Shown one piece after another: positions 32,948 through 55,920 of a stretch of 64,000 nt of DNA; position 1 is the first letter of the stretch, and the number at the start of each line of letters is the position of its first letter. The notes beneath the pieces were generated by a model, which saw only the letters and a list, made by a program, of their open reading frames with translations, made no database searches and was not told where the DNA came from. The translations under genes and the position numbers were made by a program. The stretch is from Pseudomonadota bacterium (GTDB lineage: Bacteria > Pseudomonadota > Alphaproteobacteria > Dongiales > Dongiaceae): the NCBI GenBank assembly GCA_016183985.1, contig JACPDN010000006.1, positions 682,001 to 746,000 of the forward strand, written 5' to 3'.

Positions 32948-33856
32948 ATGCGCCGGACCACGCGATTCCGCCAATTGATCGACCAGCCGGAAATACTGGT
33001 TCTGCCCGGTGCGCATGACGCCCTGTCGGTGCGCCTTATTGAGATGGCCGGTTTTGATGCCTTTACAGCGGGCGGCTATGCTGCGACCGCGAGCCTGCTA
33101 GGTGCGCCCGATATCGGACAATTGGGGTTGGCTGAAATGGCCGATCATTACGCGCGGCTCTGCGATGTCACCCCTCTTCCGATCCTCGCCGACGCCGATA
33201 CCGGATATGGCTCGCCTATCGGCGTCGCTCGCACAATCCGCGCCTATGAACGCGCCGGGGTCGCCGCGCTCTTCATCGAGGACCAGGTGGCGCCCAAGCG
33301 TTGCGGACATATGGATGGAAAGCGTGTCGTCCCGGTGACCGAGATGGTCGCCAAAGTGAAGGCAGCAGTCGATGCCCGGGTCGATGGCGATCTGGTGATC
33401 ATGGCCCGAACCGATGCCCGCGCCATCGAAGGGCTGGAAGCCGCGATCGAGCGCGCACAAATCTATCGCGAGGCGGGAGCCGATCTCATTTTTGTCGAGG
33501 CGCCGCTCACCGCCGATGAGATGGCGCGGATCTGCAGCGAGATTCCGGCGCCCTGCATGGCAAACAATGTCGAGGGCGGCAAGACGCCGCTCCTCAATAC
33601 TGCGCAACTCGAAGATATCGGCTATGCCTGCGTCGCCTTCCCCGTTGCCGCCACCTACACCGTCGCTCACGCCTTGCGCCGGCTTTACGGCACCTTGCGC
33701 GAAACGGGCGACACGACAAGCTTGCAGGGCGACATGTTGAACTTTGCCGCCTTCCACGACATCGTGCGGCTGCCGGCCTTGCGTGAGATGGAGCGCAGCG
33801 CCGATGCCTTTGCGCGCGATCTTCTGGAAAAGATGGCGGATACCGGCAACGATTAG
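32948..33856 (+). CDS. Isocitrate lyase/PEP mutase family enzyme
   Basis: A 302-residue TIM-barrel enzyme of the isocitrate lyase/phosphoenolpyruvate mutase superfamily. VLPGAHDALSVRLIEMAGFDA near the start, the metal-binding DADTGYG (about residue 76), the loop EDQVAPKRCGHMDGK with the catalytic Cys, and MARTDARAIEGLEAAIERAQ are characteristic. Members include methylisocitrate lyase, oxaloacetate decarboxylase and 2,3-dimethylmalate lyase; PrpB-like and carboxyphosphonoenolpyruvate mutase-like activities cannot be separated from the sequence. The ATG at 32948 matches the usual N-terminus; an in-frame GTG lies at 32900. Its stop overlaps the stop of the convergent PAS gene. Confidence 0.85.
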   Translation: MRRTTRFRQLIDQPEILVLPGAHDALSVRLIEMAGFDAFTAGGYAATASLLGAPDIGQLGLAEMADHYARLCDVTPLPILADADTGYGSPIGVARTIRAYERAGVAALFIEDQVAPKRCGHMDGKRVVPVTEMVAKVKAAVDARVDGDLVIMARTDARAIEGLEAAIERAQIYREAGADLIFVEAPLTADEMARICSEIPAPCMANNVEGGKTPLLNTAQLEDIGYACVAFPVAATYTVAHALRRLYGTLRETGDTTSLQGDMLNFAAFHDIVRLPALREMERSADAFARDLLEKMADTGND

Positions 33857-34332
33857 CGGCGTTGCACCGGCTCGAGATCGGGGATCACCAGGCGGTCAAA
33901 ATCGTCATAGGCTTCGATGGCAATGAAGGAGCCTGCCGGATCGTCGCCGCGCAGCAACGGGAAAATGGCAAATTCATAGCTGGTGAGGCGACCGTCGGCG
34001 AAATGCAGGTCGTTGATGCCGATGAGTCCAGCGTGCGTCTTGTGGACGAAGCGGTAACACGCACTCCAATCGACACTGTCGCGCTCGCTATAGACCAGCT
34101 CGTCGAGATACTGCCCGCTGAAATCCTGTCGACTGAAATCGGCAACCCCCGTCCCCACAAGCCGAAAGAGGATTCGGAACGGCTCCGGCTCGATATCCCC
34201 CAACAGCAATAGCGGCAGGATGTCGCGCAATGCTGACGGGTCGATCTCGGTGCGTTTCAACGGTACGCCATGGCGGCGGTTCTCATGCCAATAGGCGAAG
34301 AGCATCCGGGTCGAGGGCATGCGCGCCTGCAT
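33853..34332 (-). CDS. PAS-domain protein (PAS_5-like)
   Basis: A single-domain protein of about 159 residues. The region MLFAYWHENRRHGVPLKRTEIDPSAL, then FRILFRLVGTGVADFSRQDFSG and the closing SYEFAIFPLLRGDDP resembles the short PAS_5-type domain proteins of alphaproteobacteria, which usually carry a PAS fold without an output domain. Its function and ligand are unknown. The start is uncertain: an ATG at 34332 begins near the family start, whereas a GTG at 34413 would overlap the upstream DUF1499 gene by 43 bases. The two genes may be co-transcribed. Its stop overlaps that of the convergent lyase gene. Confidence 0.65.
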   Translation of the reverse strand: MQARMPSTRMLFAYWHENRRHGVPLKRTEIDPSALRDILPLLLLGDIEPEPFRILFRLVGTGVADFSRQDFSGQYLDELVYSERDSVDWSACYRFVHKTHAGLIGINDLHFADGRLTSYEFAIFPLLRGDDPAGSFIAIEAYDDFDRLVIPDLEPVQRR

Positions 34333-34370
34333 CACGTCGGTAAATGGCGCGACGCCTTGGGGAAGTACGC

Positions 34371-34868
34371 TCAAGATGCCACCCGATAGGGAATGCCGAG
34401 GCGCTTCAACCACGCCTCAACCCGGCTCCGATTGACGCCGAAATCGCCATAGCCGTAATTCGAACGGCTGTAGATCGCCAGTGTTGCCTCGCCGTCATTT
34501 GCCGGCTGCACAGAGATATTGACTGTATCGGGGAAGCGGAAGATCAGCGAACGTTGCACGAAGACGAAATGCAGACCGTCCTCGCTTCGCGCCACCAAAT
34601 CGGTGCGCGCTTCCTTTGGCAGCTCGGCGATCACCTTGGCGGCGAGATCGGCGGCTGGCATCGCCACTGCTTCCGTGACGAAATCAGCCTTGGCCGCACA
34701 CAGGTCGGTTGGGCAGGCCAGAGCATCATTTGGCGTCGTTGCGCGGGCGAAGGTGGCGAAGTCGATCAACCCCAGATCGGCGCTGCAGCCGGCCGCAATC
34801 AGGCATAAGCAGCAGATCAGCCCCAGGATGGGGCGTCTCCAACGTGACGAATGGAGAGGATAGGACAT
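34371..34868 (-). CDS. DUF1499 lipoprotein
   Basis: A 165-residue protein with a hydrophobic N-terminus ending in a lipobox-like IAAGC (Cys about residue 28), so it is probably a lipoprotein. The mature part shows the DUF1499 pattern: PNDALACPTDLC near the start, and IYSRSNYGYGDFGVNRSRVE near the end. The function of DUF1499 is unknown. The ATG at 34868 keeps a normal signal sequence. It lies downstream of the HlyD-type gene, with 87 bases between them, on the same strand. Confidence 0.8.
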   Translation of the reverse strand: MSYPLHSSRWRRPILGLICCLCLIAAGCSADLGLIDFATFARATTPNDALACPTDLCAAKADFVTEAVAMPAADLAAKVIAELPKEARTDLVARSEDGLHFVFVQRSLIFRFPDTVNISVQPANDGEATLAIYSRSNYGYGDFGVNRSRVEAWLKRLGIPYRVAS

Positions 34869-34955
34869 GAAGCGGCCCGACAATGACGATGACGATGACG
34901 GGCGCCTTCATACAGATCAGCGCGTTTCTTGGCCAGTATCCAGCTTAAACCCTTG

Positions 34956-36281
34956 CTATTCCTCGCGGAAAGCGCGGTGCCATGTGTCAGTGAGTGGCGA
35001 GGTGAAGTAATCGATGGCGCGGCGTGGCCCAGTGGCGATCAGCACCTCGGCCGGCATGCCGGGATAAGGCGTGACATTCATGCCCGGCGGCAATGACGCA
35101 AGATCGAGTTTCACACGGGCAATATAATAGGCAACGCCCGAGCGTTCCTCGACGACGCGGTCGGCGGATACAGTCATGACCTCGCCATCGATCGCCGGCA
35201 CCCGCCGCTGCTTGTAAGCCAGCAGCTTCACTTCCGCCTTCAGACCGGCATGGACGGAATCGATATCGTCCGTCTTCACCTTGGCCTCAACGACCAGAGC
35301 GTCATCCTGCGGCACGATGTCGAGGATCGGCTTGCCCGGCTCGATCACCGCACCGGGCCCGAAGACCTGCATGTTGACGATGCGACCGCCCTGCGGCGCA
35401 CGCACATCCATGCGCGCGAGGACGTCCTGAAGCGATGCGAGGCGGCCCTCATAGTCGGTACCTTCCATCAGAACCTGCTGCAACTCGCCATTCACCTCAG
35501 TGGCGCGGGTCGACCGCAGATTCTCGATTTCGATCTTCAAGCCGGCAACCGTTTCCCCACTCCGCGCAATATTGGCCCGCAACTCGCCAATCCGGCCGCC
35601 GAGCTCCGCTGAATCCCGCTCCAGACCGCGAAGACGCGGGATCTCGGTCAGTCCTTTCTTATAAAGTTCCCGGATGCTGACCAGTTGCTTTTCGGTAATA
35701 GCGCGCATCTCTTCAGTAGCGGATATCTGGCTCTTCAAACCGGAGACCTCGTTATCCGTTTCACCGATCTTCTTCTGGCGCATACCGACGCCTTCGTCAT
35801 AGGCCGACCAGCGCGCCATCAACAGCGCACGCTGCGAAGCCATCAGCGCCAGGACCGCGGGGTCATTTTGGGTCGCCAGCAACTCGGCCGGGAAGGCGAT
35901 GTCGCGTCTGCCACTTTGCTCAGCAGTCAAGCGCGCGATACGCGCCAGGCGCGAATAATGCTCCATATGAAGCTGACTGATTTGTGCCTGCACCTGGGTT
36001 GGATCAAGGTGCAGCAGGATGTCGCCGGCCTTCACCTGGTCGCCGTCGCGGACCAGCAGGTCCTTGACGATACCGCCTTCGAGATGTTGGACCGATTTTT
36101 TGTTGCTATCGACCACCACTGTGCCGTCGGCAATCGCCGCCCGATCAAGCGAGGAAAGCAGACCCCATAGCAGGAATCCGCCAAACCCGATGAAGACGAC
36201 CGCAAAGCCCAGCACGACATAGCGTCGCAGCGACGGTTCCGGATAGATCAGGCCCGAATGGTGAAGATCGATGACGCTCAT
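34956..36281 (-). CDS. Type I secretion membrane fusion protein, HlyD family
   Basis: A 441-residue adaptor linking an inner-membrane ABC exporter to the outer-membrane channel. One transmembrane segment (about 21-42, VVLGFAVVFIGFGGFLLWGLL) is followed by a lipoyl-like half-motif (VQHLEGGIVKDLLVRDGDQV), a long coiled coil (about 120-290) and the second half-motif with MDVRAPQGGRIVNMQVFGPG. GTVVVDSNKKSVQHLEGG and the closing PYPGMPAEVLIATGPR are typical of the PrtE/HlyD type. The ATG at 36281 overlaps the ABC gene's stop (ATGA), so both are translated from one message. No outer-membrane TolC-like gene is present in the window. Confidence 0.93.
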   Translation of the reverse strand: MSVIDLHHSGLIYPEPSLRRYVVLGFAVVFIGFGGFLLWGLLSSLDRAAIADGTVVVDSNKKSVQHLEGGIVKDLLVRDGDQVKAGDILLHLDPTQVQAQISQLHMEHYSRLARIARLTAEQSGRRDIAFPAELLATQNDPAVLALMASQRALLMARWSAYDEGVGMRQKKIGETDNEVSGLKSQISATEEMRAITEKQLVSIRELYKKGLTEIPRLRGLERDSAELGGRIGELRANIARSGETVAGLKIEIENLRSTRATEVNGELQQVLMEGTDYEGRLASLQDVLARMDVRAPQGGRIVNMQVFGPGAVIEPGKPILDIVPQDDALVVEAKVKTDDIDSVHAGLKAEVKLLAYKQRRVPAIDGEVMTVSADRVVEERSGVAYYIARVKLDLASLPPGMNVTPYPGMPAEVLIATGPRRAIDYFTSPLTDTWHRAFREE

Positions 36282-38029
36282 GATTTCACCAGTCTGGCGA
36301 CATTGCCGGTGGGCGCCAATGCGCCTTCGGCTTTGCCCGATGCCGTAACCGAGCGCAGCACGTCCGCACGCGGCCCGAATTGCGCCATACCGCCGTCGCG
36401 CAGCACGAGGAGTTTGTCGCAAACAGCAACGATCGACGGTCGATGCGTGATGAGCACAATAGTCGTCCCATCGGCCTTCGCCGCCATCAAGGCGTTCATC
36501 AGCGCCTGCTCACCGGTCTGGTCGAGATTGGCATTGGGCTCATCGAGAACGATGAAGGCCGGATTACCGAACAGCGCACGGGCAAGGCCTATGCGCTGGC
36601 GCTGGCCACCACTCAAGGCAAAGCCTTGTTCGCCGATTTCGGTGTCATATCCATGGGGCAGTGTGCCGATGGTCTCGTGCACATCCGCGCGGCGAGCGGC
36701 GGCAACGACCTTGGCCGGATCTGCCTCACCCATATGCGCAATGTTCTCGCGCACGGTTCCTTCCAGCAGTGAAACCGACTGCGGCAGATAGCCGACTGCC
36801 GTGCCGAAAGATGCGCGGTCCCAGTTCATCACATTTTGGCCGTCGAGATAGACGGCACCCTGGGTCGGCTTCCAAACACCAACCAGCAATCGAGCCAAGG
36901 TCGATTTGCCGGCAGCCGACGGGCCGATCACGCCCAACACTTCGCCTGGCTCTAGCGCGAAAGTGATGTTGCGAAGCACCGCGCGGTCGGATCCAGATGG
37001 TACAAACCCAAGGCGATCGACGGTGAGCCGCCCCTCGGCATTAAGCATCGCCATGCCGGCCGGCCGCTGCTCGACGCGACTGATCATGTCCTTCAATCGG
37101 CTATAGGCGCCGCGGGCAAAAACCCATTGGCGCCAACCCTCAATGAGATGGTCGAAAGGCAGCAGCATACGCCCCATGATGATGGAAGCAGCGACCATAG
37201 TGCCGGGTGATGCCATGCGTTCGATAACGAGAATGGCGCCGGAAGACATCATGGTGATCTGAAGCATGTAACGAAGGGTCTTCGAGAGCGCTGACATCGC
37301 CCGCGACCGACGATTGCCCTCATCAAGACCTTGCAGCACCTTGTATTGGGCCTGCTCCCACCGCCTGGCGATTGCCGGCAACATACCCATGGCCTGGATC
37401 ACTTCAGCATTGCGCAAGGCGGCCGCAGTCTGGCCGGTGCTCTTCACCGACGCCTCATTGGCCTCCGCCAGCGGCCGGCGTGCGATCATCTCCATGCCCA
37501 ACGACAAGCTGACAAGCATGGTTGCGGCACAGATGGCAATGACGCCATAGACCCAATGCAGCATGAACAACACGGCGAGGAACAGAGGCACAAACATGGC
37601 CTCGAATGGCACGCTGATAGATGAGCTGGTCAGGAATTGCCGCAGATCATTGAGGTCACGCAGCGATTGACCTGGATGATTGTTGTGCCCATCCAAATTG
37701 TCGGCAACAGCCGCTTCGAGGGTTGCTGAATTGAGCCGGCGTGCAAGCCGGTCGCCCAGGACATGGTAGACTCGGCTGCGAATATATTCGAGGGCACCTA
37801 GCAGGATGAGGCCGCCAACGGCCACCACGATGAGAGCCGCCAGCGTGTCCAGGCTTCGGCTACCGAGCACGCGGTCATAGACCTGCACCATGAAGAGCGG
37901 CACAATCAGTTGGCAGATGCAAATAAACAGCGTCAGAAAGCCGACATAAGCCAAGCCGCCACGCAAGGAGCGGACCGCGATCTCGAACGGATTATTGCGC
38001 AAGCTGGCTTTCGTCTTGGCGGCTGCCAT
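36278..38029 (-). CDS. Type I secretion ABC transporter (PrtD-type)
   Basis: A 583-residue half-transporter with six predicted membrane segments in the first about 290 residues and an ATPase domain with Walker A GPSAAGKST (about 369-377), Q-loop GYLPQSVSL, signature LSGGQRQR (about 472) and Walker B FIVLDEPNANLD (about 492 on). This is the PrtD/LapB-less type without a C39 peptidase domain, which exports uncleaved RTX proteins. It is transcribed with the RTX gene at 43205, glycosyltransferases, a methyltransferase and a membrane-anchored helical protein upstream, and the HlyD-type gene downstream. Likely substrates are the 300-residue and perhaps the 2183-residue RTX proteins. Confidence 0.93.
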   Translation of the reverse strand: MAAAKTKASLRNNPFEIAVRSLRGGLAYVGFLTLFICICQLIVPLFMVQVYDRVLGSRSLDTLAALIVVAVGGLILLGALEYIRSRVYHVLGDRLARRLNSATLEAAVADNLDGHNNHPGQSLRDLNDLRQFLTSSSISVPFEAMFVPLFLAVLFMLHWVYGVIAICAATMLVSLSLGMEMIARRPLAEANEASVKSTGQTAAALRNAEVIQAMGMLPAIARRWEQAQYKVLQGLDEGNRRSRAMSALSKTLRYMLQITMMSSGAILVIERMASPGTMVAASIIMGRMLLPFDHLIEGWRQWVFARGAYSRLKDMISRVEQRPAGMAMLNAEGRLTVDRLGFVPSGSDRAVLRNITFALEPGEVLGVIGPSAAGKSTLARLLVGVWKPTQGAVYLDGQNVMNWDRASFGTAVGYLPQSVSLLEGTVRENIAHMGEADPAKVVAAARRADVHETIGTLPHGYDTEIGEQGFALSGGQRQRIGLARALFGNPAFIVLDEPNANLDQTGEQALMNALMAAKADGTTIVLITHRPSIVAVCDKLLVLRDGGMAQFGPRADVLRSVTASGKAEGALAPTGNVARLVKS

Positions 38030-38031
38030 AG

Positions 38032-38772
38032 TCAAAGGCTCCGCAGAATATGTTCGCCGATCAGCGCCAGCGAGACAGCCGTGGTGATGCCCGCCCAGAC
38101 CCATAGCAACAACGGCTTGCGTTGCTGTGATCTTTGCTCGACAACTGCCAAGCGTTTATCGATCCCTTGCAGAAGCGTATCGAAGCGTAGCTGGAATACT
38201 TCCATCGCCTCAAGCCGATGGTCGAGTGCGGGCAGAGACGTATCGAGCTTGTCCAGAGACTGAGCAATACGCTCGTTAAGGCTTTGGTCGAGCCCGCCGC
38301 GCTCCTTGGCGACGGACACCAATTGCTTCAGCTGCCCTTGCAAACGCTGATCGCGGGCGCGAATCTCACCCAGCACAACTGCACTCACAGCGGTCGGCGT
38401 CGCCGCTCCTGCCTGTCGCTTCAATTCGACTGACGTTGTGCCATCGCCGGTCATCGCCAATACCGTCAAGGGCGAAGCGCGATCGATTTCGGCGATGGCC
38501 GGTATATTGGCCACGAAGGCATAACGCCCGTCGCCGATGCCGTTCGATACAAGATCCGGACGCGGTTGATTGGCCTCCAGCCGGACGATCAATTGCTCAT
38601 TCTGCCGGATTTCGATGCTCAGTCGCTCCGAAGGATCGGCGATATTCCAAGCCCAGCCATAGATTCGGTCAGGCTCGACTGCATCAACATAGCCCTGGAT
38701 CTGCACAGCGCCATTTGTCGGCGGCGCGGCGCCAAGATCGAGCTTCGACACCGCGTCCGCGTTAGCTGACAT
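38032..38772 (-). CDS. Membrane-anchored coiled-coil protein with a GW domain
   Basis: A 246-residue protein of unusual build. Residues about 24-117 form a beta-rich domain opening with the sequence VQIQGYVDAVEPDRIYGWAWN, a type also seen attached to glycosyltransferases. About 130-215 is a charged helical stretch (coiled coil likely), and 219-240 is a single C-terminal membrane helix (LLLWVWAGITTAVSLALIGEH). The bulk should face the cytoplasm if the tail is an inner-membrane anchor. The gene lies two bases upstream of the ABC exporter and overlaps the glycosyltransferase gene by 11 bases. It could tether glycosylation enzymes to the exporter; that is inference. I recognise no characterised homologue. 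Confidence 0.75.
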   Translation of the reverse strand: MSANADAVSKLDLGAAPPTNGAVQIQGYVDAVEPDRIYGWAWNIADPSERLSIEIRQNEQLIVRLEANQPRPDLVSNGIGDGRYAFVANIPAIAEIDRASPLTVLAMTGDGTTSVELKRQAGAATPTAVSAVVLGEIRARDQRLQGQLKQLVSVAKERGGLDQSLNERIAQSLDKLDTSLPALDHRLEAMEVFQLRFDTLLQGIDKRLAVVEQRSQQRKPLLLWVWAGITTAVSLALIGEHILRSL

Positions 38773-40105
38773 GAGTGGTCATTCCTTCAGCCATATCCTT
38801 GCCACCAAGCAGACGGTTCCGCGTCACCTGACCCGCCTTCGGCTGTTCCGCGTCCATTAATCCGCGATAGACCGCCAGATGTTCAGCCGCACAATCTTCC
38901 AGCCTGCGCCGCGGTTTGATCGCAGAAACGAGATTGTCCCACAGGGCCGGCTCGTGCAGCGCCCGCTCCATCGTGTCGACCAAGGCTGTTGCATCGCCGG
39001 GGCGGAACGTGAGGCCATCCACCTCGTGGCACACTGATTCCGCCATTCCGCCCATGTCGCTGGCAATCACCGGCCGCTTCTGCGTAAAGGCTTCGTCGAT
39101 CACGAGCGGGGCGTTCTCCCACCAGATAGATGGGGTTACCACCCAATCGACATTGCTTATCAATCCAGGAATCTCCGCTGCCTGATAGGCGCCATGCCAG
39201 CGCACAATTCCTTCGACTTTGGCCAGAGCGGTATTGAGCTCCGCCTTAAATGCTTCGCTTTGGAACGGCGCGCCGCCATGAATGTCGACCCGGAAGCTTC
39301 CCGGCCGGCGTTGATTGAGAAGGCGCGCCGCCTCGAGCAGGATCATTACGCCCTTGTTGGGGTTAAGATTTCCAAAATAGGCGAACCGATTTCGCCTTTC
39401 GCCGGGCTTAAGCGGCCGATGCGGAGTTATTTCCGGTTCCGGGCGTGCGTTTCGCAACACTTCAATACGATCCGGCGCCAAGCCCCAGGCGATGAATCTT
39501 CGCCGCAGGAAGTTGCTGGGCGACAAAAAGCGATCGATGACGGAGAAATGTGTCTTGATGTGTTTCTCGCGCAACAGAAAGTGCTCCGGCTCGAGACCTT
39601 TGAAGCAGCGATGGCAGGCATCGGGCGACGACTGATGGCATGGGCGGCGATCCCCAGTCGTCACCATCTGTCCGTCATGAGCACAGATCGCATAATAATC
39701 GTGCAACGAGAGCAGGATCTTCGCCCGCGGCAGCACCCGCCGCACGAGAAACAGCATCTCAACACCCATCATCAGAATATGATGAAAATGCACGATATCC
39801 GGCTTGAATATCGTCAGGAGGTCGGTCAGCTCCGGCACGACCCCGTGCAGATCGATCTGCGATAGATAGAAATTGTCGAAATGGCCGGTCCACATCAGCA
39901 TCTCGTCGCTATGTGCGCCAATGCCCTGGAAGACCGTCCCCGGCCGCTGTTTTCGGTGATTTTCATCTACGCACCCGATGAAGAGACCGTCGACCGATCC
40001 GTCGGCTTTCAGCTGTCGATGCAGGTCGAGCGCAAATATCTCCGTTCCACCAGGGTGTAGATCCGGATGGTTATGACAGAGGTGCAGGACTTTTAGTTTC
40101 TTCAT
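38762..40105 (-). CDS. Glycosyltransferase, GT4-like
   Basis: A 447-residue GT-B enzyme. The N-terminal donor fold begins MKKLKVLHLCHNHPDLHPGG (GGTE binding loop) and the C-terminal fold contains FAYFGNLNPNKGVMILLEAA and TPSIWWENAPLVIDEAFTQKRPVIASDMGGM with the E-x7-E-type motif (Glu before APLVI... and Glu-Ala-Phe). It should transfer a sugar from a nucleotide-linked donor with retention. A cysteine-containing segment HAHDG...CHRCF in the middle (residues about 150-170) is also seen in relatives and may bind metal. The gene follows the methyltransferase gene with one base between stop and start. Confidence 0.88.
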   Translation of the reverse strand: MKKLKVLHLCHNHPDLHPGGTEIFALDLHRQLKADGSVDGLFIGCVDENHRKQRPGTVFQGIGAHSDEMLMWTGHFDNFYLSQIDLHGVVPELTDLLTIFKPDIVHFHHILMMGVEMLFLVRRVLPRAKILLSLHDYYAICAHDGQMVTTGDRRPCHQSSPDACHRCFKGLEPEHFLLREKHIKTHFSVIDRFLSPSNFLRRRFIAWGLAPDRIEVLRNARPEPEITPHRPLKPGERRNRFAYFGNLNPNKGVMILLEAARLLNQRRPGSFRVDIHGGAPFQSEAFKAELNTALAKVEGIVRWHGAYQAAEIPGLISNVDWVVTPSIWWENAPLVIDEAFTQKRPVIASDMGGMAESVCHEVDGLTFRPGDATALVDTMERALHEPALWDNLVSAIKPRRRLEDCAAEHLAVYRGLMDAEQPKAGQVTRNRLLGGKDMAEGMTTHVS

Positions 40106-40106
40106 A

Positions 40107-40937
40107 CTAGTTGGCCTTGGCTCGCTGGAAGACGCAGACGTCCTGGAAGTTTTCGGCAATGCGGCCACTCCAATGGCCATAGGCGATCGGCCGCTGCAGG
40201 GTGAGGCCGGCCCCGCGCGCCGTCGTGAGCAGCCAGTCCTGGTCAAAGGCCACCGCCGCCATCGGATGCGCGCGATCGGCGATGTAATGCGGGCCTGCCC
40301 CATCCAGATAGAAGGCCGGTCTCGATTTACCCGCCGCCACAAGGCTCCGGTTGGCGCCATCGAGCACGAAGGCCGTGGCGAACAGCCGGCCCCGTGGCGC
40401 GAGAAGGCGAGCCGCTTCACGGAGGTAGAAAGCCGTATAGCCCGGGTCAAGATGCGTCACGACCGAGGTCATGAAAACAAAATCGACACTCTCATCCTCA
40501 AAGGGCAGTCGTCCTTGATCGGTCAGGCGACCGTCCGGGTTGTAGAGTTCGTTGTTGAAGTCGAGATGCAGGAACTCAAAATTCGGATAGGCTTGCGTGA
40601 TGTTGTCTCGGCACCATTCGATACCGGCACTCACGACGTCGAATCCGGTATAGCGCCCGCCAGGCGCCTCAAGATACTGCGTCAACGGCAAGGCCATGCG
40701 GCCGATGCCGCAACCGATCTCGAGCACCCGATCCCGGGTGGCAAGAGCTCCAAGTTCGACAAAGTGGCGCAGAAATTCACAACCGATTGCCAGGAAGTCG
40801 CCATCGCCGACGAAGTTACGCTCATCCGGCGGCACCGGTAGAAAGCGATTACGTCGGATCGCTTTGAGCAACCCGGCAAAGGCTGCTTCATCCAGTTCTG
40901 CTTGATCGGTTGCCGGTCGGCGCGTCGCCATATTCAC
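40107..40937 (-). CDS. SAM-dependent methyltransferase (class I)
   Basis: A 276-residue class I methyltransferase. The SAM-binding motif VLEIGCGIGR lies at about 71-80; then GFDVVSAGIEWCRDN (post I), and the motif with FVFMTSVVTHLDP. This is the fold used on small molecules or sugars, so O-methylation of a glycan is plausible given the neighbours. The GTG at 40937 overlaps the upstream gene's stop (GTGA); an ATG six bases further in is an alternative. It lies between two glycosyltransferase genes in the same operon. Confidence 0.88.
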   Translation of the reverse strand: MNMATRRPATDQAELDEAAFAGLLKAIRRNRFLPVPPDERNFVGDGDFLAIGCEFLRHFVELGALATRDRVLEIGCGIGRMALPLTQYLEAPGGRYTGFDVVSAGIEWCRDNITQAYPNFEFLHLDFNNELYNPDGRLTDQGRLPFEDESVDFVFMTSVVTHLDPGYTAFYLREAARLLAPRGRLFATAFVLDGANRSLVAAGKSRPAFYLDGAGPHYIADRAHPMAAVAFDQDWLLTTARGAGLTLQRPIAYGHWSGRIAENFQDVCVFQRAKAN

Positions 40938-43132
40938 AAGTTGGGCCCGCTGGCCATGTCGTCGAAACGAGCCATCAGGCTCTGCATGTCGTCATTCCAA
41001 CGCCGTCCGGCCAGCCATCGGTTGTAAAGCCCCGCCACGGAGCGCTGATATCCGGCATGCCGGTTGATCGACTTACGTTCAAAATGAAACAGCACCGCTT
41101 CGGGACAATAATAGATCTCTCCACCAGCCCGGCGGAGCTTTAGGCATAGATCGGAATCTTCGTAGTCACCGATGATATAGTCCTCGGTAAACCCGCCAAC
41201 ATTCAGGAAGGCGTCACGCCGGACCAATAATGCTGCACCAGTCACTGCCGGCACGGCGCGCGTGCGAAGTGCTGGCACAAACTCCCGGGGGGCGCCTTTG
41301 TAATAGTGCAGGTTCAGCCAATGCCCACCTGCGTCGCGCGCAAAGCGCATGCCGGCGTGCTGCAGCGAATGATCGTCGAAAAGGAGCCGCGCTCCACTGG
41401 CAACTACCTTCTTCCGCCGCAACAGGGGCATTGCCATCTTCTGTAACCAGCCTGGTCCCTCCGGCACGACATCCGAATTGAGCAGCAGCAGGAACTGCCC
41501 ACGCGCAACGGATGCAGCCGCATTGTTGGCTGCCGCATAGCCGAAATTGGCAGACATGATGAGCACCGTCAGCGGCAGGCCATAAAGCTGGTGCAGCCCA
41601 TTCAAAAAATGTACGAGCTCTGCGCGTTGCTCGGGCGAGTCGAGAACAAAGATGATTTCGGTCTGGGCCATCGCCGGATCGACTGCAAATACGCCTATTT
41701 GAAAGCGCAGATAGTCAAGATTTCGATAGAGTGGGATGATGATCGAATAGCGCGGCGATTGGACCGGCGCACCTAATTGCAGAACGTCGGGCGCCTGGCG
41801 GGCAGCGAGGTGCTGCCCATGGAGCGGTTCGGCAGCCGGCGCTATCACCTTGGCGATGACATCAGTCGTCAGATATTCCGGCGGTACTGATCCCAAGACA
41901 GCGTCGCGGAGCTGGACTGGCGATCCGATGGCGACGCGCGCCAGAATCTCCAGCACAGCTCCCGATCCAAGCTGCAGCGTAAGCTTGACCTGTCCTCGCG
42001 GCATGCCGGCGTTCGGCAAGAAGACCACAAAACCCCGCGCCATCGGTCGACCATCATACCGCCTGTCAATATCCGAGCGTGGAAAGCTCGACCAGATCTC
42101 ATCGATCCGCTTGGCTTCAAGCCCCGATGCTGTCAGAGAAACCGTTTGCGTCAACTTGTGCGGGTCTCGCACCCAGCCCCTGATGAAGACGCCGCCCTTG
42201 CCGTCGCTGATCAACAGGTCAATGCCTGCACCAAGCGGGGCACCTTTATCGGTGAGATTGCGGCGAGCGGCCGGCTGAAACAGCTCCAACTCGCGCAGCA
42301 GAGCTGCCGCCGCCATATCATCTGCTGCCGTATCGCCGACACAACGCTTCACAAAGCCGCACACCATTGCGGCCATCTGCTTGTTGTTCTGTAGCCAAGT
42401 GAGGAATGGCATATTGGGCAGAGCCGGCACCTTGGCGGTCGTCACACCGTCCACGCCAAGCACTATCAGCAAGCTGCCAGACTTAAGTTGAGTACGATCC
42501 AACAGTAGCAGGCCGCGACCACGTGCCATCTTCAACGGTTTGTAGCTTGATGTCGTAATACCTCTGTCACCAACAACAAAGACATCGGTTACGTCGCCAA
42601 CGCTCATCGGCATACTTACCAGCGCAAAATGCTGCGACACCGCCGCTTCTGCAGTGGCGACCGAGGGTTTTCCATTCAGATCGGCAAGAAGTGTCCGACA
42701 AAATCGACCGAAACTGACGTCGTGGCGTAATTGGAAGAGGTCACGGCAAACATCCAGCATCTGGCGCGCCAGTCGCAACTTGCCTGCCGCGTCCAAATCA
42801 TGGGTCAATGCCGTCGCATCGAGCGCCGCAAAGTCCTTTGCATCGACGATGCCGATCAGCCGGCCATCGCGGGCCACCAAATCGATCGGTCGCGCGGCCG
42901 CTTCAGCGCGGAGAATTATGAGTTGCCGCGACTCCCCTTCAAGCATCGGCAGCGCCACACGGACCACCGGCGGCGGCAACATCCTACCCTCGCGCTGTGG
43001 CGCCGGACTACTATTGCCTTCCGTCACAATCAAACGCAGGCCGCCGGGAATATCGAAGCAGGCTGGGGATTTGCCCGCGATGCCCAGCCCCTTGCGCAGA
43101 TCGGCAATCATCTCGATTGGCTGACCGAGCAT
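40934..43132 (-). CDS. Large GT2-type glycosyltransferase with an N-terminal extension
   Basis: About 732 residues. The C-terminal about 270 residues are a GT2 domain: YSIIIPLYRNLDYLRFQIG (about 462 on), then LLLLNSDVVPEGPGWL (metal-binding DxD-like NSD), and GGFTEDYIIGDYEDSDLCL with the ED motif. The first about 450 residues are unlike known transferases: an alpha/beta segment, a helical bundle and then FIRGWVRDPHKLTQTVSLTASG (about 316), which resembles the GW domain of the neighbouring helical protein. The ATG at 43132 has GGAAAAG upstream; a GTG at 43177 would lie inside the hairpin that follows the RTX gene. The product should extend a glycan from a nucleotide sugar. Confidence 0.85.
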   Translation of the reverse strand: MLGQPIEMIADLRKGLGIAGKSPACFDIPGGLRLIVTEGNSSPAPQREGRMLPPPVVRVALPMLEGESRQLIILRAEAAARPIDLVARDGRLIGIVDAKDFAALDATALTHDLDAAGKLRLARQMLDVCRDLFQLRHDVSFGRFCRTLLADLNGKPSVATAEAAVSQHFALVSMPMSVGDVTDVFVVGDRGITTSSYKPLKMARGRGLLLLDRTQLKSGSLLIVLGVDGVTTAKVPALPNMPFLTWLQNNKQMAAMVCGFVKRCVGDTAADDMAAAALLRELELFQPAARRNLTDKGAPLGAGIDLLISDGKGGVFIRGWVRDPHKLTQTVSLTASGLEAKRIDEIWSSFPRSDIDRRYDGRPMARGFVVFLPNAGMPRGQVKLTLQLGSGAVLEILARVAIGSPVQLRDAVLGSVPPEYLTTDVIAKVIAPAAEPLHGQHLAARQAPDVLQLGAPVQSPRYSIIIPLYRNLDYLRFQIGVFAVDPAMAQTEIIFVLDSPEQRAELVHFLNGLHQLYGLPLTVLIMSANFGYAAANNAAASVARGQFLLLLNSDVVPEGPGWLQKMAMPLLRRKKVVASGARLLFDDHSLQHAGMRFARDAGGHWLNLHYYKGAPREFVPALRTRAVPAVTGAALLVRRDAFLNVGGFTEDYIIGDYEDSDLCLKLRRAGGEIYYCPEAVLFHFERKSINRHAGYQRSVAGLYNRWLAGRRWNDDMQSLMARFDDMASGPNL

Positions 43133-43159
43133 ACTTTTCCAGTCGTTGAAAAGAGAGAT

Positions 43160-43197
43160 GGCGCCGGATCCAGCCACACGCGGCTGGATCCGGCGCC
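43160..43197 (-). terminator. Long hairpin between the RTX and GT2 genes
   Basis: A perfect 16-bp stem (GGCGCCGGATCCAGCC and its complement) around six bases, eight bases past the RTX stop codon. On the minus strand it is followed by TCTCTCTTTTC, a moderately U-rich tail. It is likely a leaky terminator or an RNA-stability element that lets the RTX gene be expressed at a higher level than the downstream glycosyltransferase genes. Confidence 0.65.
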
Positions 43198-43204
43198 AAC
43201 GTCC

Positions 43205-44107
43205 TTAACTGATGACGAAGAAGGCGCTTGGGTTGGCCTGAACGTCAGCCACCTTGACGCCGACCAGGGTTATCTGGTCGCCGCTGCCGAAATCGATCAC
43301 CGTATTGCCGCCGACCTCATGTGCAAGCGACGCGACGTCGTCCGCGCCATGCAGGTCAAGCCCATTGATGTTCTTCGAGATCTTGACGATGTCCTCGCCC
43401 TCCTCGAAATCCATGATGACATCCTGACCACCGCCGCCGTGGAAGACGAAGGTGTCGTCACCACCACCGCCCCGCAGGTAGTCGTTACCGGCGCCACCAT
43501 CGAGAATGTCGTCACCAGCACCACCGGCCAGACGGTCTGAGCCATCGCCACCCAGCAGGTGGTCGTCGCCCTTCCCGCCATCAAGGCTGTCGTCGCCAGC
43601 GCCGCCCTTCAGAGCGTCGTCGCCATTGCCACCGCTCAGGTTGTCGTTGCCCGCACCGCCTTCGAGACGATCATCGCCGTTGCCACCGCGCAAGGCGTCG
43701 TCGCCGTTGCCGCCGTCGATATAGTCGTCGCCATTCCCGCCGGTAAGGTCGTCTTTGCCGTCCCCGCCGAACAGATTGTCGTCACCGCTGCCACCATTGA
43801 TCCAGTCGTCGCCGCCCTGGCCAAAGATGCTGTCTTCACCGGAGCCGCCGTTGATGTAGTCGGCATCGCCCCCACCGAACACCACATCGCTGCCGGAACC
43901 GCCCAAGACATGATCGGACCCGGTGCCGCCGCTGATCAAATCGTCACCGGCACCGCCGTTGATCCAGTCATGGCCGGAACCACCATCGATAAAGTCTCTG
44001 CCGCCACCGCCGGCAATTGCGTCGTCACCGCCGCCGCCCAGGATCACATCCCCGTGGCTGGTGCCGACAAGACGGTCGGCGAAATCACCGCCCGGAATTG
44101 TCGCCAT
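43205..44107 (-). CDS. RTX protein, 300 residues, likely type I secretion substrate
   Basis: A small acidic protein made of about 20 tandem GG-x-G-x-D-x-hydrophobic nonapeptides (for example GGSGDDNLF, GGNGDDYID) that would form a calcium-stabilised beta-roll over about residues 20-225. The C-terminal about 75 residues (GGGGQDVIMDFEEGEDIVKI and on, ending in FFVIS) form a secretion-signal-like cap. There is no N-terminal signal peptide and no enzymatic domain. It is the first gene of the run that encodes glycosyltransferases, a methyltransferase and the type I exporter, which makes it the prime substrate. A hairpin follows the stop. It may be a surface or matrix protein. Confidence 0.92.
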   Translation of the reverse strand: MATIPGGDFADRLVGTSHGDVILGGGGDDAIAGGGGRDFIDGGSGHDWINGGAGDDLISGGTGSDHVLGGSGSDVVFGGGDADYINGGSGEDSIFGQGGDDWINGGSGDDNLFGGDGKDDLTGGNGDDYIDGGNGDDALRGGNGDDRLEGGAGNDNLSGGNGDDALKGGAGDDSLDGGKGDDHLLGGDGSDRLAGGAGDDILDGGAGNDYLRGGGGDDTFVFHGGGGQDVIMDFEEGEDIVKISKNINGLDLHGADDVASLAHEVGGNTVIDFGSGDQITLVGVKVADVQANPSAFFVIS

Positions 44108-44261
44108 CGTGTCTCTCCTCGTCGCTTGGATTGATGGTCGTGGTGCCGAAACCGCGGGTAATTGAACAGCTCACGACGAGGTCTGCAACATTTCTATTCT
44201 TATAAAACTAATATAAATATTTGCGACGATGTAATTCTCACAGCTTATATTTTGGTGGCAG

Positions 44262-45479
44262 TCACGGCACCTCTTTTCTGCCCGCGACGATTGCAATCTC
44301 CTCCCATTGCAACAGAAGAGATTTTTGAGAAAAAGCTTCTTCAGCGCGCTTTCTGGCATGCGCCCGCAACCTCTGGGCGGCATCGGTATCGTGCAGCGCC
44401 GCACGCAACACTTTTTCCAATGCAAGAATATCGCGGTGATCGACATATCTTGCGGTTTCGTGACCGCCGAGGATCTCGAGCGCAGGTTTCGTGTTCGACG
44501 CCACGATATGGCAACCACAGGCCATCGCCTCCACAAGCGACCAGGAAGGCACGAATGGTATCGTCAAATAGGCATGCACATCAGATATCTGCAGGAGGCG
44601 CCGATAGTCGTCACGCGCCAATGTGCCGAGAAAATGCACCCGCGATAGATCGAGATTCGGCAACGCGCGTAGCGCCCGCGCCTTATATGTGTCTCCCCCG
44701 GATAGTTGCTTTGAGTAATAGGCCGCATCGTTTCCGGCGATCGCGACATGCACGTCCGGCTCTACTTGCAGCAAGCCATCGATCGCCTGCATGAATTGAG
44801 GAAAGCCACGATATGGCTCCATGCCCCGCGTCGCGTAGGTTAGCAAACGATTAACCTTAGCGAAGTCCTTGCCGCCGAAAGCGCGATCTACAACACGCCC
44901 AGGCATGAAGTAGTCAGTATCTATGCCGTCGTGCAAGACACGCAGTTTATGCTGATAGCTGGCCGGAAAGGTGCTGCGCTGAAATGCCGTCGGCACAAGG
45001 CCGCAATCGACATCTTCCAGTAACATCAGCAAGGGTGCATTGAGAGTTCGAATGCGGCAGGCGTTGTCCGGCGATACCGCATTGGGGTCCAGATAGTCCG
45101 CGTCACTGTTGTGTGGATGATAGTACCATTCGAAATGGCCAATGAGCGCCGCATCAGGGAAGACCTCGCGCAGATATAGGCCGACGCCCCAGCCACAATG
45201 TACAAAAATCACATCCGGCGCGAACCCCTCACCCCGTAGACGGTGGCATGCCTCATAGACAGCCTGTCCATTGAGTACGCCTGCCTCAAATCCAGCCAGG
45301 TAGTGGTGTGTCCCGCCACCAGCAGACCGCTTGGCCTGAATGCGTCGGATGGCGATACTGTCTGATGCGCCGTCCGCAAAAGTTATGAAAGCAACACGAT
45401 GATGCGTCGAATGGGAAAGATGATCGGCAAGCGCGCCGAACTGACCGGGATAGTCGCGATGCACGAAGAGAAAGTTCAC
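44262..45479 (-). CDS. Glycosyltransferase, GT4-like
   Basis: A 405-residue GT-B enzyme. It begins with VNFLFVHRDYPGQFGALADHL and continues with GFAPDVIFVHCGWGVGLYLREVFPDA, a pattern of exopolysaccharide GT4 enzymes; the C-terminal half contains LLTYATRGMEPYRGFPQFMQAI and SDVHAYLTIPFVPSWSLVEAMACGCHIVAS (donor-binding region with E-A-M). The likely start is the GTG at 45479, with a GGAG site ten bases upstream; an ATG at 45539 adds 20 basic residues without similarity. The gene is divergent from galE across a short AT-rich gap. A 154-base AT-rich gap with a possible promoter separates it from the RTX gene downstream. Confidence 0.85.
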   Translation of the reverse strand: MNFLFVHRDYPGQFGALADHLSHSTHHRVAFITFADGASDSIAIRRIQAKRSAGGGTHHYLAGFEAGVLNGQAVYEACHRLRGEGFAPDVIFVHCGWGVGLYLREVFPDAALIGHFEWYYHPHNSDADYLDPNAVSPDNACRIRTLNAPLLMLLEDVDCGLVPTAFQRSTFPASYQHKLRVLHDGIDTDYFMPGRVVDRAFGGKDFAKVNRLLTYATRGMEPYRGFPQFMQAIDGLLQVEPDVHVAIAGNDAAYYSKQLSGGDTYKARALRALPNLDLSRVHFLGTLARDDYRRLLQISDVHAYLTIPFVPSWSLVEAMACGCHIVASNTKPALEILGGHETARYVDHRDILALEKVLRAALHDTDAAQRLRAHARKRAEEAFSQKSLLLQWEEIAIVAGRKEVP

Positions 45480-45657
45480 AAGCCGTCTCCGCTTCCACCG
45501 TTCTTTTTGACGGCGCTCATTAGATCGCGCAACGCACATCTTCTTGCAAGTCTCTGGATAAGTATATTGGGTTGCTGTTTATGAATATTGTAAATAGTGC
45601 CTAAGTACTTTTCGTTTGATACGTTCCCTTCGCAGCAATGGCGATAAGGGGATATTG

Positions 45658-46665
45658 ATGCGTCCTGTGCTCGTAACTGGTGGTGCCGGCTATGTCGGAT
45701 CTCACGCATGCCGCATGCTCGCTGCCAGTGGTTATCTACCGGTGACGCTCGACAATCTCTCTACCGGGCATCGTTGGGCCGTCAAATGGGGTCCGCTTGA
45801 GATTGGCGATATGGCCGATCAGGCCCGCGTCTCGGACATTATCTCGCGGTACAAGCCAGTCGCCGTGATGCATTTCGCCGCTCTTTCACTGGTCGGAGAG
45901 TCGGCCACGCAACCCGCACGCTATTACGGCAATAATGTCGCCGGTACGCTCTCGCTGCTGGAGGCAATGCGCGACGGCGGGGTTGACCGACTGATCTTCT
46001 CCAGCACCTGTGCAACATATGGCGAGCCGGTGAGTTGCCCCATTGCCGAAGACGCGCCGCAGCGGCCCATCAATACCTATGGCCGTTCTAAGCAGATGGT
46101 CGAGATGATCCTGCAGGATTTCGTAGCGGCCTATGGCCTGCGCGCGACCGCGCTGCGCTACTTCAATGCGGCCGGTGCCGCGGATGCTGATGGGATCGGC
46201 GAAGCCCACCAGCCGGAAACCCATCTAATCCCTCTCGTCATCGCCGCCGCGCGCGGCAAGCGCGGACCGGTACAGATCTTTGGCACCGACTATCCAACCG
46301 CCGATGGAACCTGCGAGCGCGACTACATTCATGTGAATGACCTCGGCGCCGCCCATGTGCGCGCCGTGGAGTTCCTGAACGAGTCGCCGGGCTTTCATGC
46401 GTTTAACCTTGGTACGGGGCGACCCTACTCCGTACGGCAGGTTATCGAAGCAGTTTCCATGACGGCTGGGAGGCCGGTGCCGCATCAGATCGGCCCGCGG
46501 CGCCCTGGCGACCCACCGTCTCTCTTTGCCGACCCACATCACGCCCAGGCGGTCCTCGGGTGGCAGGGGGTGCAGTCGGATCTGGGTGAAATCGTCGCAA
46601 GTGCCTGGCGCTGGCATGCCGCCCAGGCCGCGTCGTCCCTGGCGGAGATACAGATTGCCGTTTGA
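45658..46665 (+). CDS. galE: UDP-glucose 4-epimerase (GalE-like)
   Basis: A 335-residue short-chain dehydrogenase of the extended type. The N-terminal NAD-binding motif is VLVTGGAGYVGSHACRML (G-x-x-G-x-x-G), the catalytic Ser-Thr lie in SSTCATYG and the Tyr-Lys pair in NTYGRSK. LRYFNAAGA and DGTCERDYIHVNDL are GalE signatures. It interconverts UDP-glucose and UDP-galactose for glycan synthesis. The start at 45658 has an AGGGGAT site. It leads a plus-strand run with the rml genes only four bases downstream. A dTDP-glucose dehydratase is unlikely because these GalE signatures are intact. Confidence 0.92.
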   Translation: MRPVLVTGGAGYVGSHACRMLAASGYLPVTLDNLSTGHRWAVKWGPLEIGDMADQARVSDIISRYKPVAVMHFAALSLVGESATQPARYYGNNVAGTLSLLEAMRDGGVDRLIFSSTCATYGEPVSCPIAEDAPQRPINTYGRSKQMVEMILQDFVAAYGLRATALRYFNAAGAADADGIGEAHQPETHLIPLVIAAARGKRGPVQIFGTDYPTADGTCERDYIHVNDLGAAHVRAVEFLNESPGFHAFNLGTGRPYSVRQVIEAVSMTAGRPVPHQIGPRRPGDPPSLFADPHHAQAVLGWQGVQSDLGEIVASAWRWHAAQAASSLAEIQIAV

Positions 46666-46669
46666 TCCC

Positions 46670-47269
46670 ATGACAAAGGTCTTGCCAGAAGGCGTCAGGC
46701 TCATTGAGGGGCGACGCTTTGCCGATAATCGTGGCTGGTTCATGGAACTGCACCGCAGCTCCGCGATTGCCGAGAACGATGATCTGCCTGACTTCTGCCA
46801 AGATAATGTTTCGCTCACGAGCCAGCCGGCCGTCGTACGCGGGCTGCACTTTCAGCGTCCGCCCTATGCCCAGGCGAAGCTGGTGACCGTTCTGGCCGGC
46901 GCCATCCTGGACGTCGTCGTCGATTTGCGCCTCGAGTCACCAAGTTTCGGGCGACCGACGGCCATTCACCTTGCCGCGTCGAGCGGTCGGCATCTTTTTG
47001 TGCCAGTAGGTTTCGCTCATGGCTTCTGCGTGCTCCAGCCCGAGACATTGGTGCACTATAAAGTCTCGGCTCCTTATGCACCGACTTCTGAAGATGGTGT
47101 TGCCTGGGATGATGTCGACCTCGGAATAGATTGGCCATTTACCAGCGCCGAAATCCTCGTGTCCGAGAAAGATGCTCTCCTGCCGAGACTGCGTGACCTT
47201 TCCCCTGTCGACTGGCAGCTGGCACCCCTTCCATTGCGTCCCCGGGCATCTGCCCGCCGCAGCACTTAG
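46670..47269 (+). CDS. rmlC: dTDP-4-dehydrorhamnose 3,5-epimerase
   Basis: A 199-residue RmlC-type cupin enzyme that inverts C3 and C5 of dTDP-4-dehydro-6-deoxyglucose in dTDP-L-rhamnose synthesis. It shows RGWFMELHRSSA, the catalytic His in VVRGLHFQRPPYAQAKLV (about His60), and VPVGFAHGFCVL followed by the conserved Tyr in VHYKVSAPY. The start is four bases after the galE stop, and the next gene (rmlD) starts 16 bases after its stop. The C-terminal tail is slightly longer than usual and Arg-rich. Confidence 0.93.
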   Translation: MTKVLPEGVRLIEGRRFADNRGWFMELHRSSAIAENDDLPDFCQDNVSLTSQPAVVRGLHFQRPPYAQAKLVTVLAGAILDVVVDLRLESPSFGRPTAIHLAASSGRHLFVPVGFAHGFCVLQPETLVHYKVSAPYAPTSEDGVAWDDVDLGIDWPFTSAEILVSEKDALLPRLRDLSPVDWQLAPLPLRPRASARRST

Positions 47270-50794: not shown

Positions 50795-50798
50795 GACG

Positions 50799-53516: not shown

Positions 53517-53530
53517 GCGACGGCAACCAC

Positions 53531-55917: not shown

Positions 55918-55920
55918 CCC

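What the first reader, a model, noticed from the sequence alone, without database searches (positions are those of the whole stretch)
33853..45479. RTX protein encoded in one operon-like run with glycosyltransferases, a methyltransferase and its exporter
Seen: on one strand, an RTX gene (43205), a GT2-type gene, a methyltransferase, a GT4-type gene, a membrane-anchored helical protein and a type I ABC exporter with its HlyD partner follow each other with small gaps or overlaps. Known: RTX proteins are exported by such exporters, and Caulobacter places S-layer exporter genes near polysaccharide genes. Inference: this may be a system that builds a glycosylated RTX surface protein, or exports a protein that anchors a glycan. 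No outer-membrane channel gene is in view.
Basis: partly seen in the sequence, partly recalled or inferred. Interest (0 to 1): 0.75.

Follow-up and report, generated by a model that had tools for sequence, protein, structure and literature searches.

The report
Exopolysaccharide locus with secreted RTX helper
This is a bacterial gene set of the same kind that makes the slime polysaccharide galactoglucan in alfalfa root-nodule bacteria, in which a small secreted calcium-binding protein travels with the sugar-building enzymes; it matters because why the protein is needed is not settled, and the protein carries a short conserved tag that can now be tested.

Summary
On the minus strand GT4, a 300-aa RTX protein, a 747-aa GT2, a methyltransferase, GT4, a tail-anchored coiled-coil protein, a PrtD-type ABC exporter and HlyD follow each other; sugar genes run divergently beside them. 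The genome is a Dongia relative. The interpretation needs changing: the locus is homologous, gene by gene, to the galactoglucan (EPS II; wga/wgc/wgd/wge, old exp) cluster of Sinorhizobium meliloti pSymB. There the RTX protein WgeA (ExpE1) is exported by WgdA/WgdB (ExpD1/D2) and needed for the exopolysaccharide (passages). Of 33 distinct alphaproteobacterial loci with the tail-anchored protein (WgeE homologue), 32 carry the GT2, and the RTX gene lies directly upstream of it in 28 of 31 that can be judged. New here: these 28 RTX proteins share an N-terminal motif [AP][ST][ILVF]xG[GS]; in the own genome 1 of 11 RTX frames with a complete start has it, the cassette one. Nothing shows that the RTX protein is glycosylated. 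Verdict: new member of a known kind; the tag makes the RTX protein's role testable.

The parts
44262..45539 (-). GT4 glycosyltransferase (Glyco_trans_4_3 + Glycos_transf_1), homologue of S. meliloti WgcA; likely start 45479
   Evidence: reciprocal best hit 31%
43205..44107 (-). 300-aa RTX protein, WgeA (ExpE1) homologue; N-terminal MATIPGG tag, repeats, C-terminal domain
   Evidence: 53% to WgeA; motif
40934..43177 (-). 747-aa protein: N-terminal region, beta-sandwich domain 316-414, C-terminal GT2; WgeB homologue
40107..40937 (-). class I SAM methyltransferase, homologue of the S. meliloti gene in the wgeC place
   Evidence: 48%
38762..40105 (-). GT4 glycosyltransferase, WgeD homologue (start read from the translation, about 40105)
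   Evidence: 47%
38032..38772 (-). 246-aa tail-anchored protein P0008, WgeE (ExpE5) homologue: beta-sandwich, long coiled coil, C-terminal TM helix
   Evidence: 30% to WgeE
36278..38104 (-). PrtD-type ABC exporter, WgdA (ExpD1) homologue; likely start 38029
   Evidence: TIGR01842; 50%; tree
34956..36281 (-). HlyD-type adaptor, WgdB (ExpD2) homologue
   Evidence: TIGR01843; 35%; start
33853..34413 (-). PAS_5 domain protein downstream; found beside the block in G002, G003, G004 and G007 (the contig of G006 ends before it); role unknown
45616..46665 (+). GalE, UDP-glucose 4-epimerase (looks like RmlB by Pfam, but TIGR01179 409 bits, cut-off 262)
46526..47269 (+). RmlC (TIGR01221); real start probably near 46688
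47285..48175 (+). RmlD (TIGR01214)
47998..49083 (+). RmlA, glucose-1-phosphate thymidylyltransferase (TIGR01207); real start near 48150
49262..50794 (+). DUF6212 protein, homologue of S. meliloti WgaA
   Evidence: 30%
50742..53516 (+). GT2-GT4 fusion, WgaB homologue
   Evidence: 39%
53450..54661 (+). probably secreted protein of unknown family, homologue of the S. meliloti gene before rmlA
   Evidence: no family; 32%
54709..55917 (+). polysaccharide pyruvyl transferase (PF04230), homologue of the two pyruvyl transferases after wgaB
55921..57081 (+). GDSL/SGNH hydrolase-like protein; no counterpart found in the S. meliloti stretch

Best explanation
The locus is a galactoglucan (EPS II)-type exopolysaccharide cluster. 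Cytosolic glycosyltransferases (WgaB-, WgcA-, WgeB-, WgeD-like) use sugar nucleotides made partly on site (GalE, RmlA, RmlC, RmlD) to build a pyruvylated, probably methylated heteropolysaccharide, likely rich in glucose and galactose (inferred from gene content). The small RTX protein is exported from its C-terminus by the PrtD/HlyD pair through a TolC-type channel encoded elsewhere, folds with calcium outside, and is needed there for the polymer to appear (secretion and need reported for WgeA in S. meliloti, inferred here). The tail-anchored WgeE-like protein has its beta-sandwich and coiled coil on the cytosolic side and probably holds the glycosyltransferases or the RTX protein at the exporter (inferred).
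For: 15 window genes have reciprocal best partners inside the S. meliloti 1021 pSymB wg cluster at 30-59% identity; GalE is a 16th pair only at superfamily level, 28% (tested between 27 window proteins and that stretch of pSymB, not genome against genome). Sites published before wgaA and wgeA of 1021 (PMC12542648 passages) agree with the genes found in L157; WgeE is named there 'putative membrane protein (formerly ExpE5)'. [quoted passage not shown] WgeA secretion is TolC dependent and the tolC mutant lacks galactoglucan (PMC2912261). dTDP-glucose is the glucose donor for EPS II, which fits RmlA; GalE gives UDP-galactose. The cassette recurs: 32 of 33 loci with an anchored WgeE carry the GT2 and the second GT4, 28 of 31 that can be judged have the RTX gene directly upstream of the GT2 with gaps of 4-185 bp, 27 of 32 have the PrtD.
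Against: wggR and wgeH have no hit in the window and wgeF and wgeG only hit the GT2 and GT4 already paired; GalE stands where RmlB stands in S. meliloti, so the polymer may differ. RTX is not adjacent in L080, L083 and L133, and PrtD is not in the fetched DNA of 5 of 32 loci (in L089 and L123 of these the contig ends within 3 kb). No chemistry is known for Dongia. No PHO-box excess was found: 2 matches against 4.15 expected. R. favelukesii keeps exporter and RTX gene without the full set.
Confidence: 0.82

Rival explanations
1. The RTX protein is itself the carrier or primer: the glycosyltransferases start the chain on the conserved N-terminal Ser/Thr, and the glycoprotein leaves through the type I exporter.
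For: Invariant Ser/Thr in the N-terminal motif of 28 of 28 cassette RTX proteins, rare in other RTX frames. Among 24 polytopic neighbours of these loci scanned, of 27 seen, none belongs to a flippase (Wzx), polymerase (Wzy) or oligosaccharyl transferase family. GT genes and RTX gene are linked even where the PrtD is not in the fetched DNA.
Against: No glycan on any WgeA is mentioned in the passages read; the motif could be a start cap of the beta-roll or a docking signal. One ABC-2 transporter (PF01061) lies by the related locus L135, which has no anchored WgeE. Flippase or polymerase genes may lie elsewhere; that was not tested genome-wide. The crude gene caller may also have missed membrane proteins.
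Confidence: 0.13
2. The RTX protein is an S-layer-like or adhesive surface glycoprotein and the sugars are for its anchoring, as first suggested by analogy with Caulobacter.
For: RTX beta-roll proteins can form surface layers (recalled); the gene set is directed to the cell surface.
Against: The protein is small (300 aa here) and has no Pfam domain other than RTX repeats; the homologous set in S. meliloti makes a secreted exopolysaccharide.
Confidence: 0.04
3. Exporter and RTX gene merely sit next to polysaccharide genes and serve other substrates, as PrsDE does in rhizobia.
For: PrsDE lies in an EPS region and exports many proteins (PMC8227245 passage); at least 18 RTX reading frames in the own genome (my count from the capped list).
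Against: The same set recurs in rearranged orders in several families; most cassette PrtDs form one branch away from six PrtDs without such GT neighbours.
Confidence: 0.06

Closest known systems
Galactoglucan (EPS II) cluster wga/wgc/wgd/wge (exp) of Sinorhizobium meliloti pSymB
   Same: Homologues of WgaA, WgaB, pyruvyl transferase, the protein before rmlA, RmlA/C/D, WgcA, WgdA, WgdB, WgeA, WgeB, methyltransferase, WgeD and WgeE, in two divergent blocks
   Different: No counterpart of its own for wggR, wgeF, wgeG, wgeH; one pyruvyl transferase instead of two; GalE instead of RmlB; extra GDSL protein; exporter genes after the RTX-GT genes instead of before them
Azospirillum brasilense plasmid p2 locus (NZ_CP032347.1 343525-373657)
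   Same: PrtD, HlyD, RTX 'calcium-binding protein', GT2, methyltransferase, GT4, pyruvyl transferase, WgeE-like protein, galE with a MarR-type gene beside it
   Different: Extra GT2/GT4 pair between GT4 and WgeE; annotated only by product, no function given in the record
PrsDE/PlyA/NodO of Rhizobium leguminosarum
   Same: Type I exporter inside an EPS region, exporting RTX and other proteins (passage, PMC8227245; ExpE1 resembles NodO, PMC1403797 passage)
   Different: Broad substrate range; that EPS uses a Wzx/Wzy system; not compared by sequence here
Caulobacter RsaA exporter and sphingan AtrBD clusters
   Same: Type I exporter near polysaccharide genes (both recalled)
   Different: Not tested here by sequence; no S-layer evidence in this locus

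Membership tests
Galactoglucan (EPS II) type cluster | Type I exporter pair WgdA/WgdB | tested here: met
   50% and 35%, reciprocal best within the cluster; TIGR01842 and TIGR01843 over cut-off
Galactoglucan (EPS II) type cluster | Small RTX calcium-binding protein WgeA in one run with WgeB-WgeE | tested here: met
   53% to WgeA, same order RTX-GT2-MT-GT4-WgeE; calcium binding itself not tested
Galactoglucan (EPS II) type cluster | Glycosyltransferases WgaB, WgcA, WgeB, WgeD | tested here: met
   39, 31, 34, 47%, reciprocal best
Galactoglucan (EPS II) type cluster | WgeF, WgeG, WgeH | tested here: not met
   no counterpart of their own in the 64-kb window; a second GT2/GT4 pair is present in L126 and the A. 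brasilense locus
Galactoglucan (EPS II) type cluster | dTDP-sugar genes RmlA-D in the cluster | tested here: inconclusive
   RmlA, RmlC, RmlD met; RmlB replaced by GalE; one RmlB over cut-off at C13:319105 elsewhere in the genome
Galactoglucan (EPS II) type cluster | MarR-type regulator WggR | tested here: not met
   no tblastn hit at E 0.001 in the window; rest of the genome not searched for it
Galactoglucan (EPS II) type cluster | Product is a pyruvylated galactose-glucose polymer and needs WgeA | not testable with these tools
   only gene content argues for it
PrtD-type exporter (TIGR01842) | Score over curated cut-off, no N-terminal peptidase domain | tested here: met
   642 bits against 510; Pfam shows ABC membrane and ATPase domains and no peptidase C39
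Glycosylated surface RTX protein | Glycan covalently bound to the RTX protein | not testable with these tools
   candidate acceptor residue only

The most novel reading that the evidence does not exclude
The WgeA-type RTX protein is a protein primer or carrier for an exopolysaccharide: glycosyltransferases, held at the exporter by the WgeE scaffold, start the chain on the invariant Ser/Thr of its N-terminal [AP][ST][ILVF]xG[GS] tag, and the type I exporter takes protein and young chain out together. This would be a further route of polysaccharide export beside the Wzx/Wzy, ABC and synthase routes.
Probability: 0.13. Interest if true: 0.88.

Novelty: new member of a known kind. Interest (0 to 1): 0.5.

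Why it matters
It turns a rhizobial oddity (an exopolysaccharide that needs a secreted RTX protein) into a cassette found in many alphaproteobacteria, shows by conservation which parts belong together (RTX, GT2, GT4, WgeE), and points to a short tag on the RTX protein whose change in S. meliloti would tell directly whether the protein is a helper, a docking partner or the carrier of the glycan.

Tried and rejected
Rejected: S-layer glycoprotein reading (no support; see rivals). Rejected: 'rmlB' for the first divergent gene, which is GalE. PHO-box search with a recalled consensus gave fewer matches than expected. Search of solved structures with the WgeE profile gave only weak matches, best E 0.014, mostly helical or coiled-coil proteins; fold searches of the WgeE model gave only common beta-sandwich matches: Foldseek none at E 0.001 or better, VIA best Z 7.7, rmsd 2.4, 78 aligned. 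These say little. A profile comparison of the WgeE domain with the middle domain of the GT2 was suggestive, not conclusive: HHalign probability 41%, E 2.9e-4, against under 1% for the other two parts of the GT2; the order of strands and helix agrees in the two models. N-glycosylation sequons: 1 in the window RTX protein, 0-11 in others, no pattern. Search of solved structures with the protein at 53450-54658 gave nothing of use. Literature: 10 searches; none was made for the N-terminal motif, so I cannot say that it is unpublished. The two founding papers (Becker 1997, Moreira 2000) are not held and are known here only by title and through passages of later papers. Passages of PMC5748678, PMC4443731 and PMC6801904 said nothing on how galactoglucan leaves the cell.

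Rows dropped before the counts: L121 and L122 (same contigs as L078 and L086), L071-L074 (same contigs as G007, G006, G003, G002), G003 (two contig pieces, L040 and L145), L134, L137 and L138 (WgeE-like domain only in larger proteins), and four class genomes with a match that were not fetched (G042, G071, G229, G293). L135 and L136 are in the table but have no anchored WgeE. L078 cannot be judged for RTX because its contig begins inside the GT2. L088 has its WgeE in a broken frame. The S. meliloti and A. brasilense loci came in through the GT2, all others through the WgeE-like protein. Component calls rest on BLAST thresholds set in the script; the methyltransferase matches of L075 and L076 lie on the other strand in a larger protein.
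Full report
What is there. On the minus strand of the window, from 45539 down to 34956, lie eight genes with short gaps or overlaps: a GT4 glycosyltransferase, a 300-aa RTX protein, a 747-aa protein ending in a GT2 domain, a SAM methyltransferase, a second GT4, a 246-aa protein with a C-terminal membrane helix (P0008), a PrtD-type ABC exporter and its HlyD partner. A PAS_5 protein follows at 33853-34413. Divergently, from 45616 to 57081, lie GalE, RmlC, RmlD, RmlA, a DUF6212 protein, a GT2-GT4 fusion, a protein without a family, a pyruvyl transferase and a GDSL protein. Pfam alone makes the first of these look like RmlB; NCBIfam names it GalE (TIGR01179, 409 bits, cut-off 262). The one RmlB over cut-off in the genome is elsewhere, at C13:319105.

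Where it comes from. The window is C13:682001-746000 of a 4.65-Mb genome. Genomes marked as the same genus have contigs whose records are titled Dongia (for instance G002:C2 and NZ_SNYW01000007.1, both 643901 bases). Within the 17 genomes held of the family, P0008 occurs in 6, all of this genus. Of the six other genus members, four have the eight-gene block in the same order beside the same divergent genes (G002, G004, G006, G007; GalE not found in G007), one has it on contig fragments (G003), and in one P0008 was not found (G005, whose PrtD sits by an 1150-aa RTX protein with no cassette glycosyltransferase in 20 kb).

The cassette is widespread. A scan of genome contigs with P0008 gave 19 loci, 15 of them outside the genus: Neoroseomonas, Siccirubricoccus, Dankookia, Roseicella, Paeniroseomonas, Belnapia, Oceanibaculum and unnamed alphaproteobacteria. 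A profile search of 385 alphaproteobacterial genomes, drawn evenly, matched 26. In the loci fetched, components were sought with the window's own proteins and the P0008 profile (rows left out are listed under Tried and rejected). Of 35 distinct loci, 33 encode a membrane-anchored P0008. Of these 33, 32 have the GT2 and the same 32 a match to the second GT4; the exception is a 5.6-kb contig. The RTX gene is directly upstream of the GT2 gene on the same strand, gap 4-185 bp, in 28 of 31 that can be judged. It is not there in L080, L083 and L133; the genome of L083 has many RTX genes elsewhere, that of L080 could not be searched. PrtD is present in 27 of 32 (of the five without, the contigs of L089 and L123 end within 3 kb), HlyD in 25 of 32 (two contigs end before it), a methyltransferase match in 19 of 32, the first GT4 in 10 of 32. 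Gene order varies (exporter first, last or in the middle), so the set is kept by function and not only by descent of one piece of DNA.

The exporter looks dedicated. In a tree of 52 exporters, 33 of 37 rows from these loci form a group (support 99/99) that shuts out six PrtDs of relatives without such glycosyltransferase neighbours; row L078 is unresolved outside it, and the exporters near L086, L135 and L136 fall with the larger, non-PrtD exporters, L086 on a long branch. In 12 of 12 loci of the Acetobacteraceae type (L075-L077, L079-L085, L087, L088) PrtD is doubled; the first copies (12 rows) and the second copies (9 rows in the tree) make two separate branches.

What it is. A tblastn with the GT2 hit Sinorhizobium megaplasmids. 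The S. meliloti pSymB region (L156, L157) holds the whole set. Inside it, reciprocal best hits are: PrtD-WgdA 50%, HlyD-WgdB 35%, RTX-WgeA 53%, GT2-WgeB 34%, methyltransferase 48%, GT4-WgeD 47%, P0008-WgeE 30%, GT4-WgcA 31%, DUF6212-WgaA 30%, GT2/GT4-WgaB 39%, pyruvyl transferase 31%, the protein before rmlA 32%, RmlA 59%, RmlC 43%, RmlD 34%; GalE pairs with RmlB only at superfamily level, 28%. wggR and wgeH have no hit in the window, and wgeF and wgeG only hit the GT2 and GT4 already paired. Gene names follow order in the cluster and the names given in PMC12542648 (passages): wgeA SMb21314, wgeB SMb21313, wgeD SMb21311, wgeE SMb21310 'putative membrane protein (formerly ExpE5)'; the published places of sites before wgaA and wgeA agree with L157. 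This is the galactoglucan or EPS II cluster.

What is known of that cluster, from passages only. ExpE1 (WgeA) is secreted, binds calcium and resembles NodO; [quoted passage not shown] A review calls wgdA and wgdB 'potentially engaged in the polymerization' (PMC3233446).

The tail-anchored protein. P0008/WgeE has a beta-sandwich (residues 25-116), a long coiled coil and a C-terminal membrane helix (model of mean pLDDT 78, pTM 0.47); 20 columns are invariant in 18 sequences down to 24% identity, 19 of them between residues 27 and 111. Basic residues before the helix suggest that the rest stays in the cytosol (inference). The 747-aa GT2 (model of mean pLDDT 84, pTM 0.60) has a domain at 316-414 with the same order of strands and helix and a weak profile match to it. 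A shared docking domain in glycosyltransferase and anchor is therefore plausible but not shown.

A tag on the RTX protein. The 28 cassette RTX proteins, which otherwise differ in length and repeats, have at or near the presumed N-terminus a motif [AP][ST][ILVF]xG[GS] (MATIPGG, MADFASLIGG, MATLEGG and so on): 25 by a strict pattern, three by eye, with a GTG start (L089, L132) or Pro for Ala (L131). Several frames have earlier start codons, so the start is read from the motif's own ATG or GTG. The Ser/Thr column is 28 of 28, the Gly three places on 28 of 28. Controls: of 34 other RTX reading frames in the fetched DNA, many cut at their start and some pieces of one gene, 2 match, one of which is a piece of the L125+146 cassette RTX itself; of 969 reading frames of 120 aa or more in 19 loci, 8 match, all cassette RTX genes, while the same test, tied to the first start codon, missed the cassette RTX frames of L030, L032, L131 and L157; of 11 RTX reading frames with a complete start in the own genome (of at least 18 RTX frames there), 1 matches, the cassette one. 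The RTX frame of the related locus L135 also begins MATLAGG. Export signals of RTX proteins are C-terminal (established), so the tag should serve something else: docking to WgeE or WgeB, a cap of the beta-roll, or attachment of the glycan. Among alignment columns filled in at least 70% of the rows no other Ser/Thr column reaches 80%, so, if a protein glycan exists, this is the only residue conserved enough to be its general site.

Flippase and polymerase. Of 27 frames with five or more predicted membrane helices, other than PrtD, in these loci, 24 were scanned: MFS, EamA, SBF, RND, EptA-type, AI-2E, SSF, binding-protein transport, nitrate reductase gamma, NnrS, ABC-3 and DctM proteins, and one ABC-2 transporter beside L135, which has no anchored WgeE. 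None is in a Wzx, Wzy or oligosaccharyl transferase family. Three were not scanned (two in L157, one in L158 that its record calls TctB). Whether unlinked flippases serve this polymer was not tested.

Verdict. It is an EPS II-type exopolysaccharide cluster with a secreted RTX helper, so the kind is known; its spread and the RTX tag are what this work adds. The glycosylated-RTX idea survives only as the bold reading, at about 0.13.

Noticed in passing
12889-19440: A 2183-aa protein of RTX repeats (41 Pfam stretches) beyond rpoD; in several Acetobacteraceae-type loci a 700-1200-aa RTX gene lies divergently beside the cassette RTX gene. It starts MTAITGSAGND, without the cassette tag.
   Followed up: partly
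L075-L077, L079-L085, L087, L088: The exporter ATPase gene of the cassette is doubled in tandem, suggesting a two-gene (heterodimeric) type I exporter. My crude pattern for the LSGGQ motif missed most copies and some ordinary PrtDs too, so it says nothing on activity.
   Followed up: partly
53450-54661: Protein with a likely signal segment and no Pfam or NCBIfam match; the residues GNEIN and ITEFG recall the two catalytic Glu of clan A glycoside hydrolases (my reading of the translation). It may trim the polymer.
   Followed up: no
L086 (same contig as L122); window 21103-45539: In an unnamed alphaproteobacterium the cassette begins right after dnaG-rpoD; in Dongia it also lies near rpoD and dnaG, about 10-20 kb away.
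   Followed up: no
L123 10300-11715, L137, L138: The WgeE-type beta-sandwich also occurs in larger proteins, up to 1832 aa; no Pfam family covers it in P0008.
   Followed up: no
L080 and L083 (Dankookia, Roseicella): Cassettes without an RTX gene in the fetched 20 kb; an epimerase-like gene stands where the RTX gene is expected, and no reading frame of 80 aa or more with the tag was found there.
   Followed up: partly
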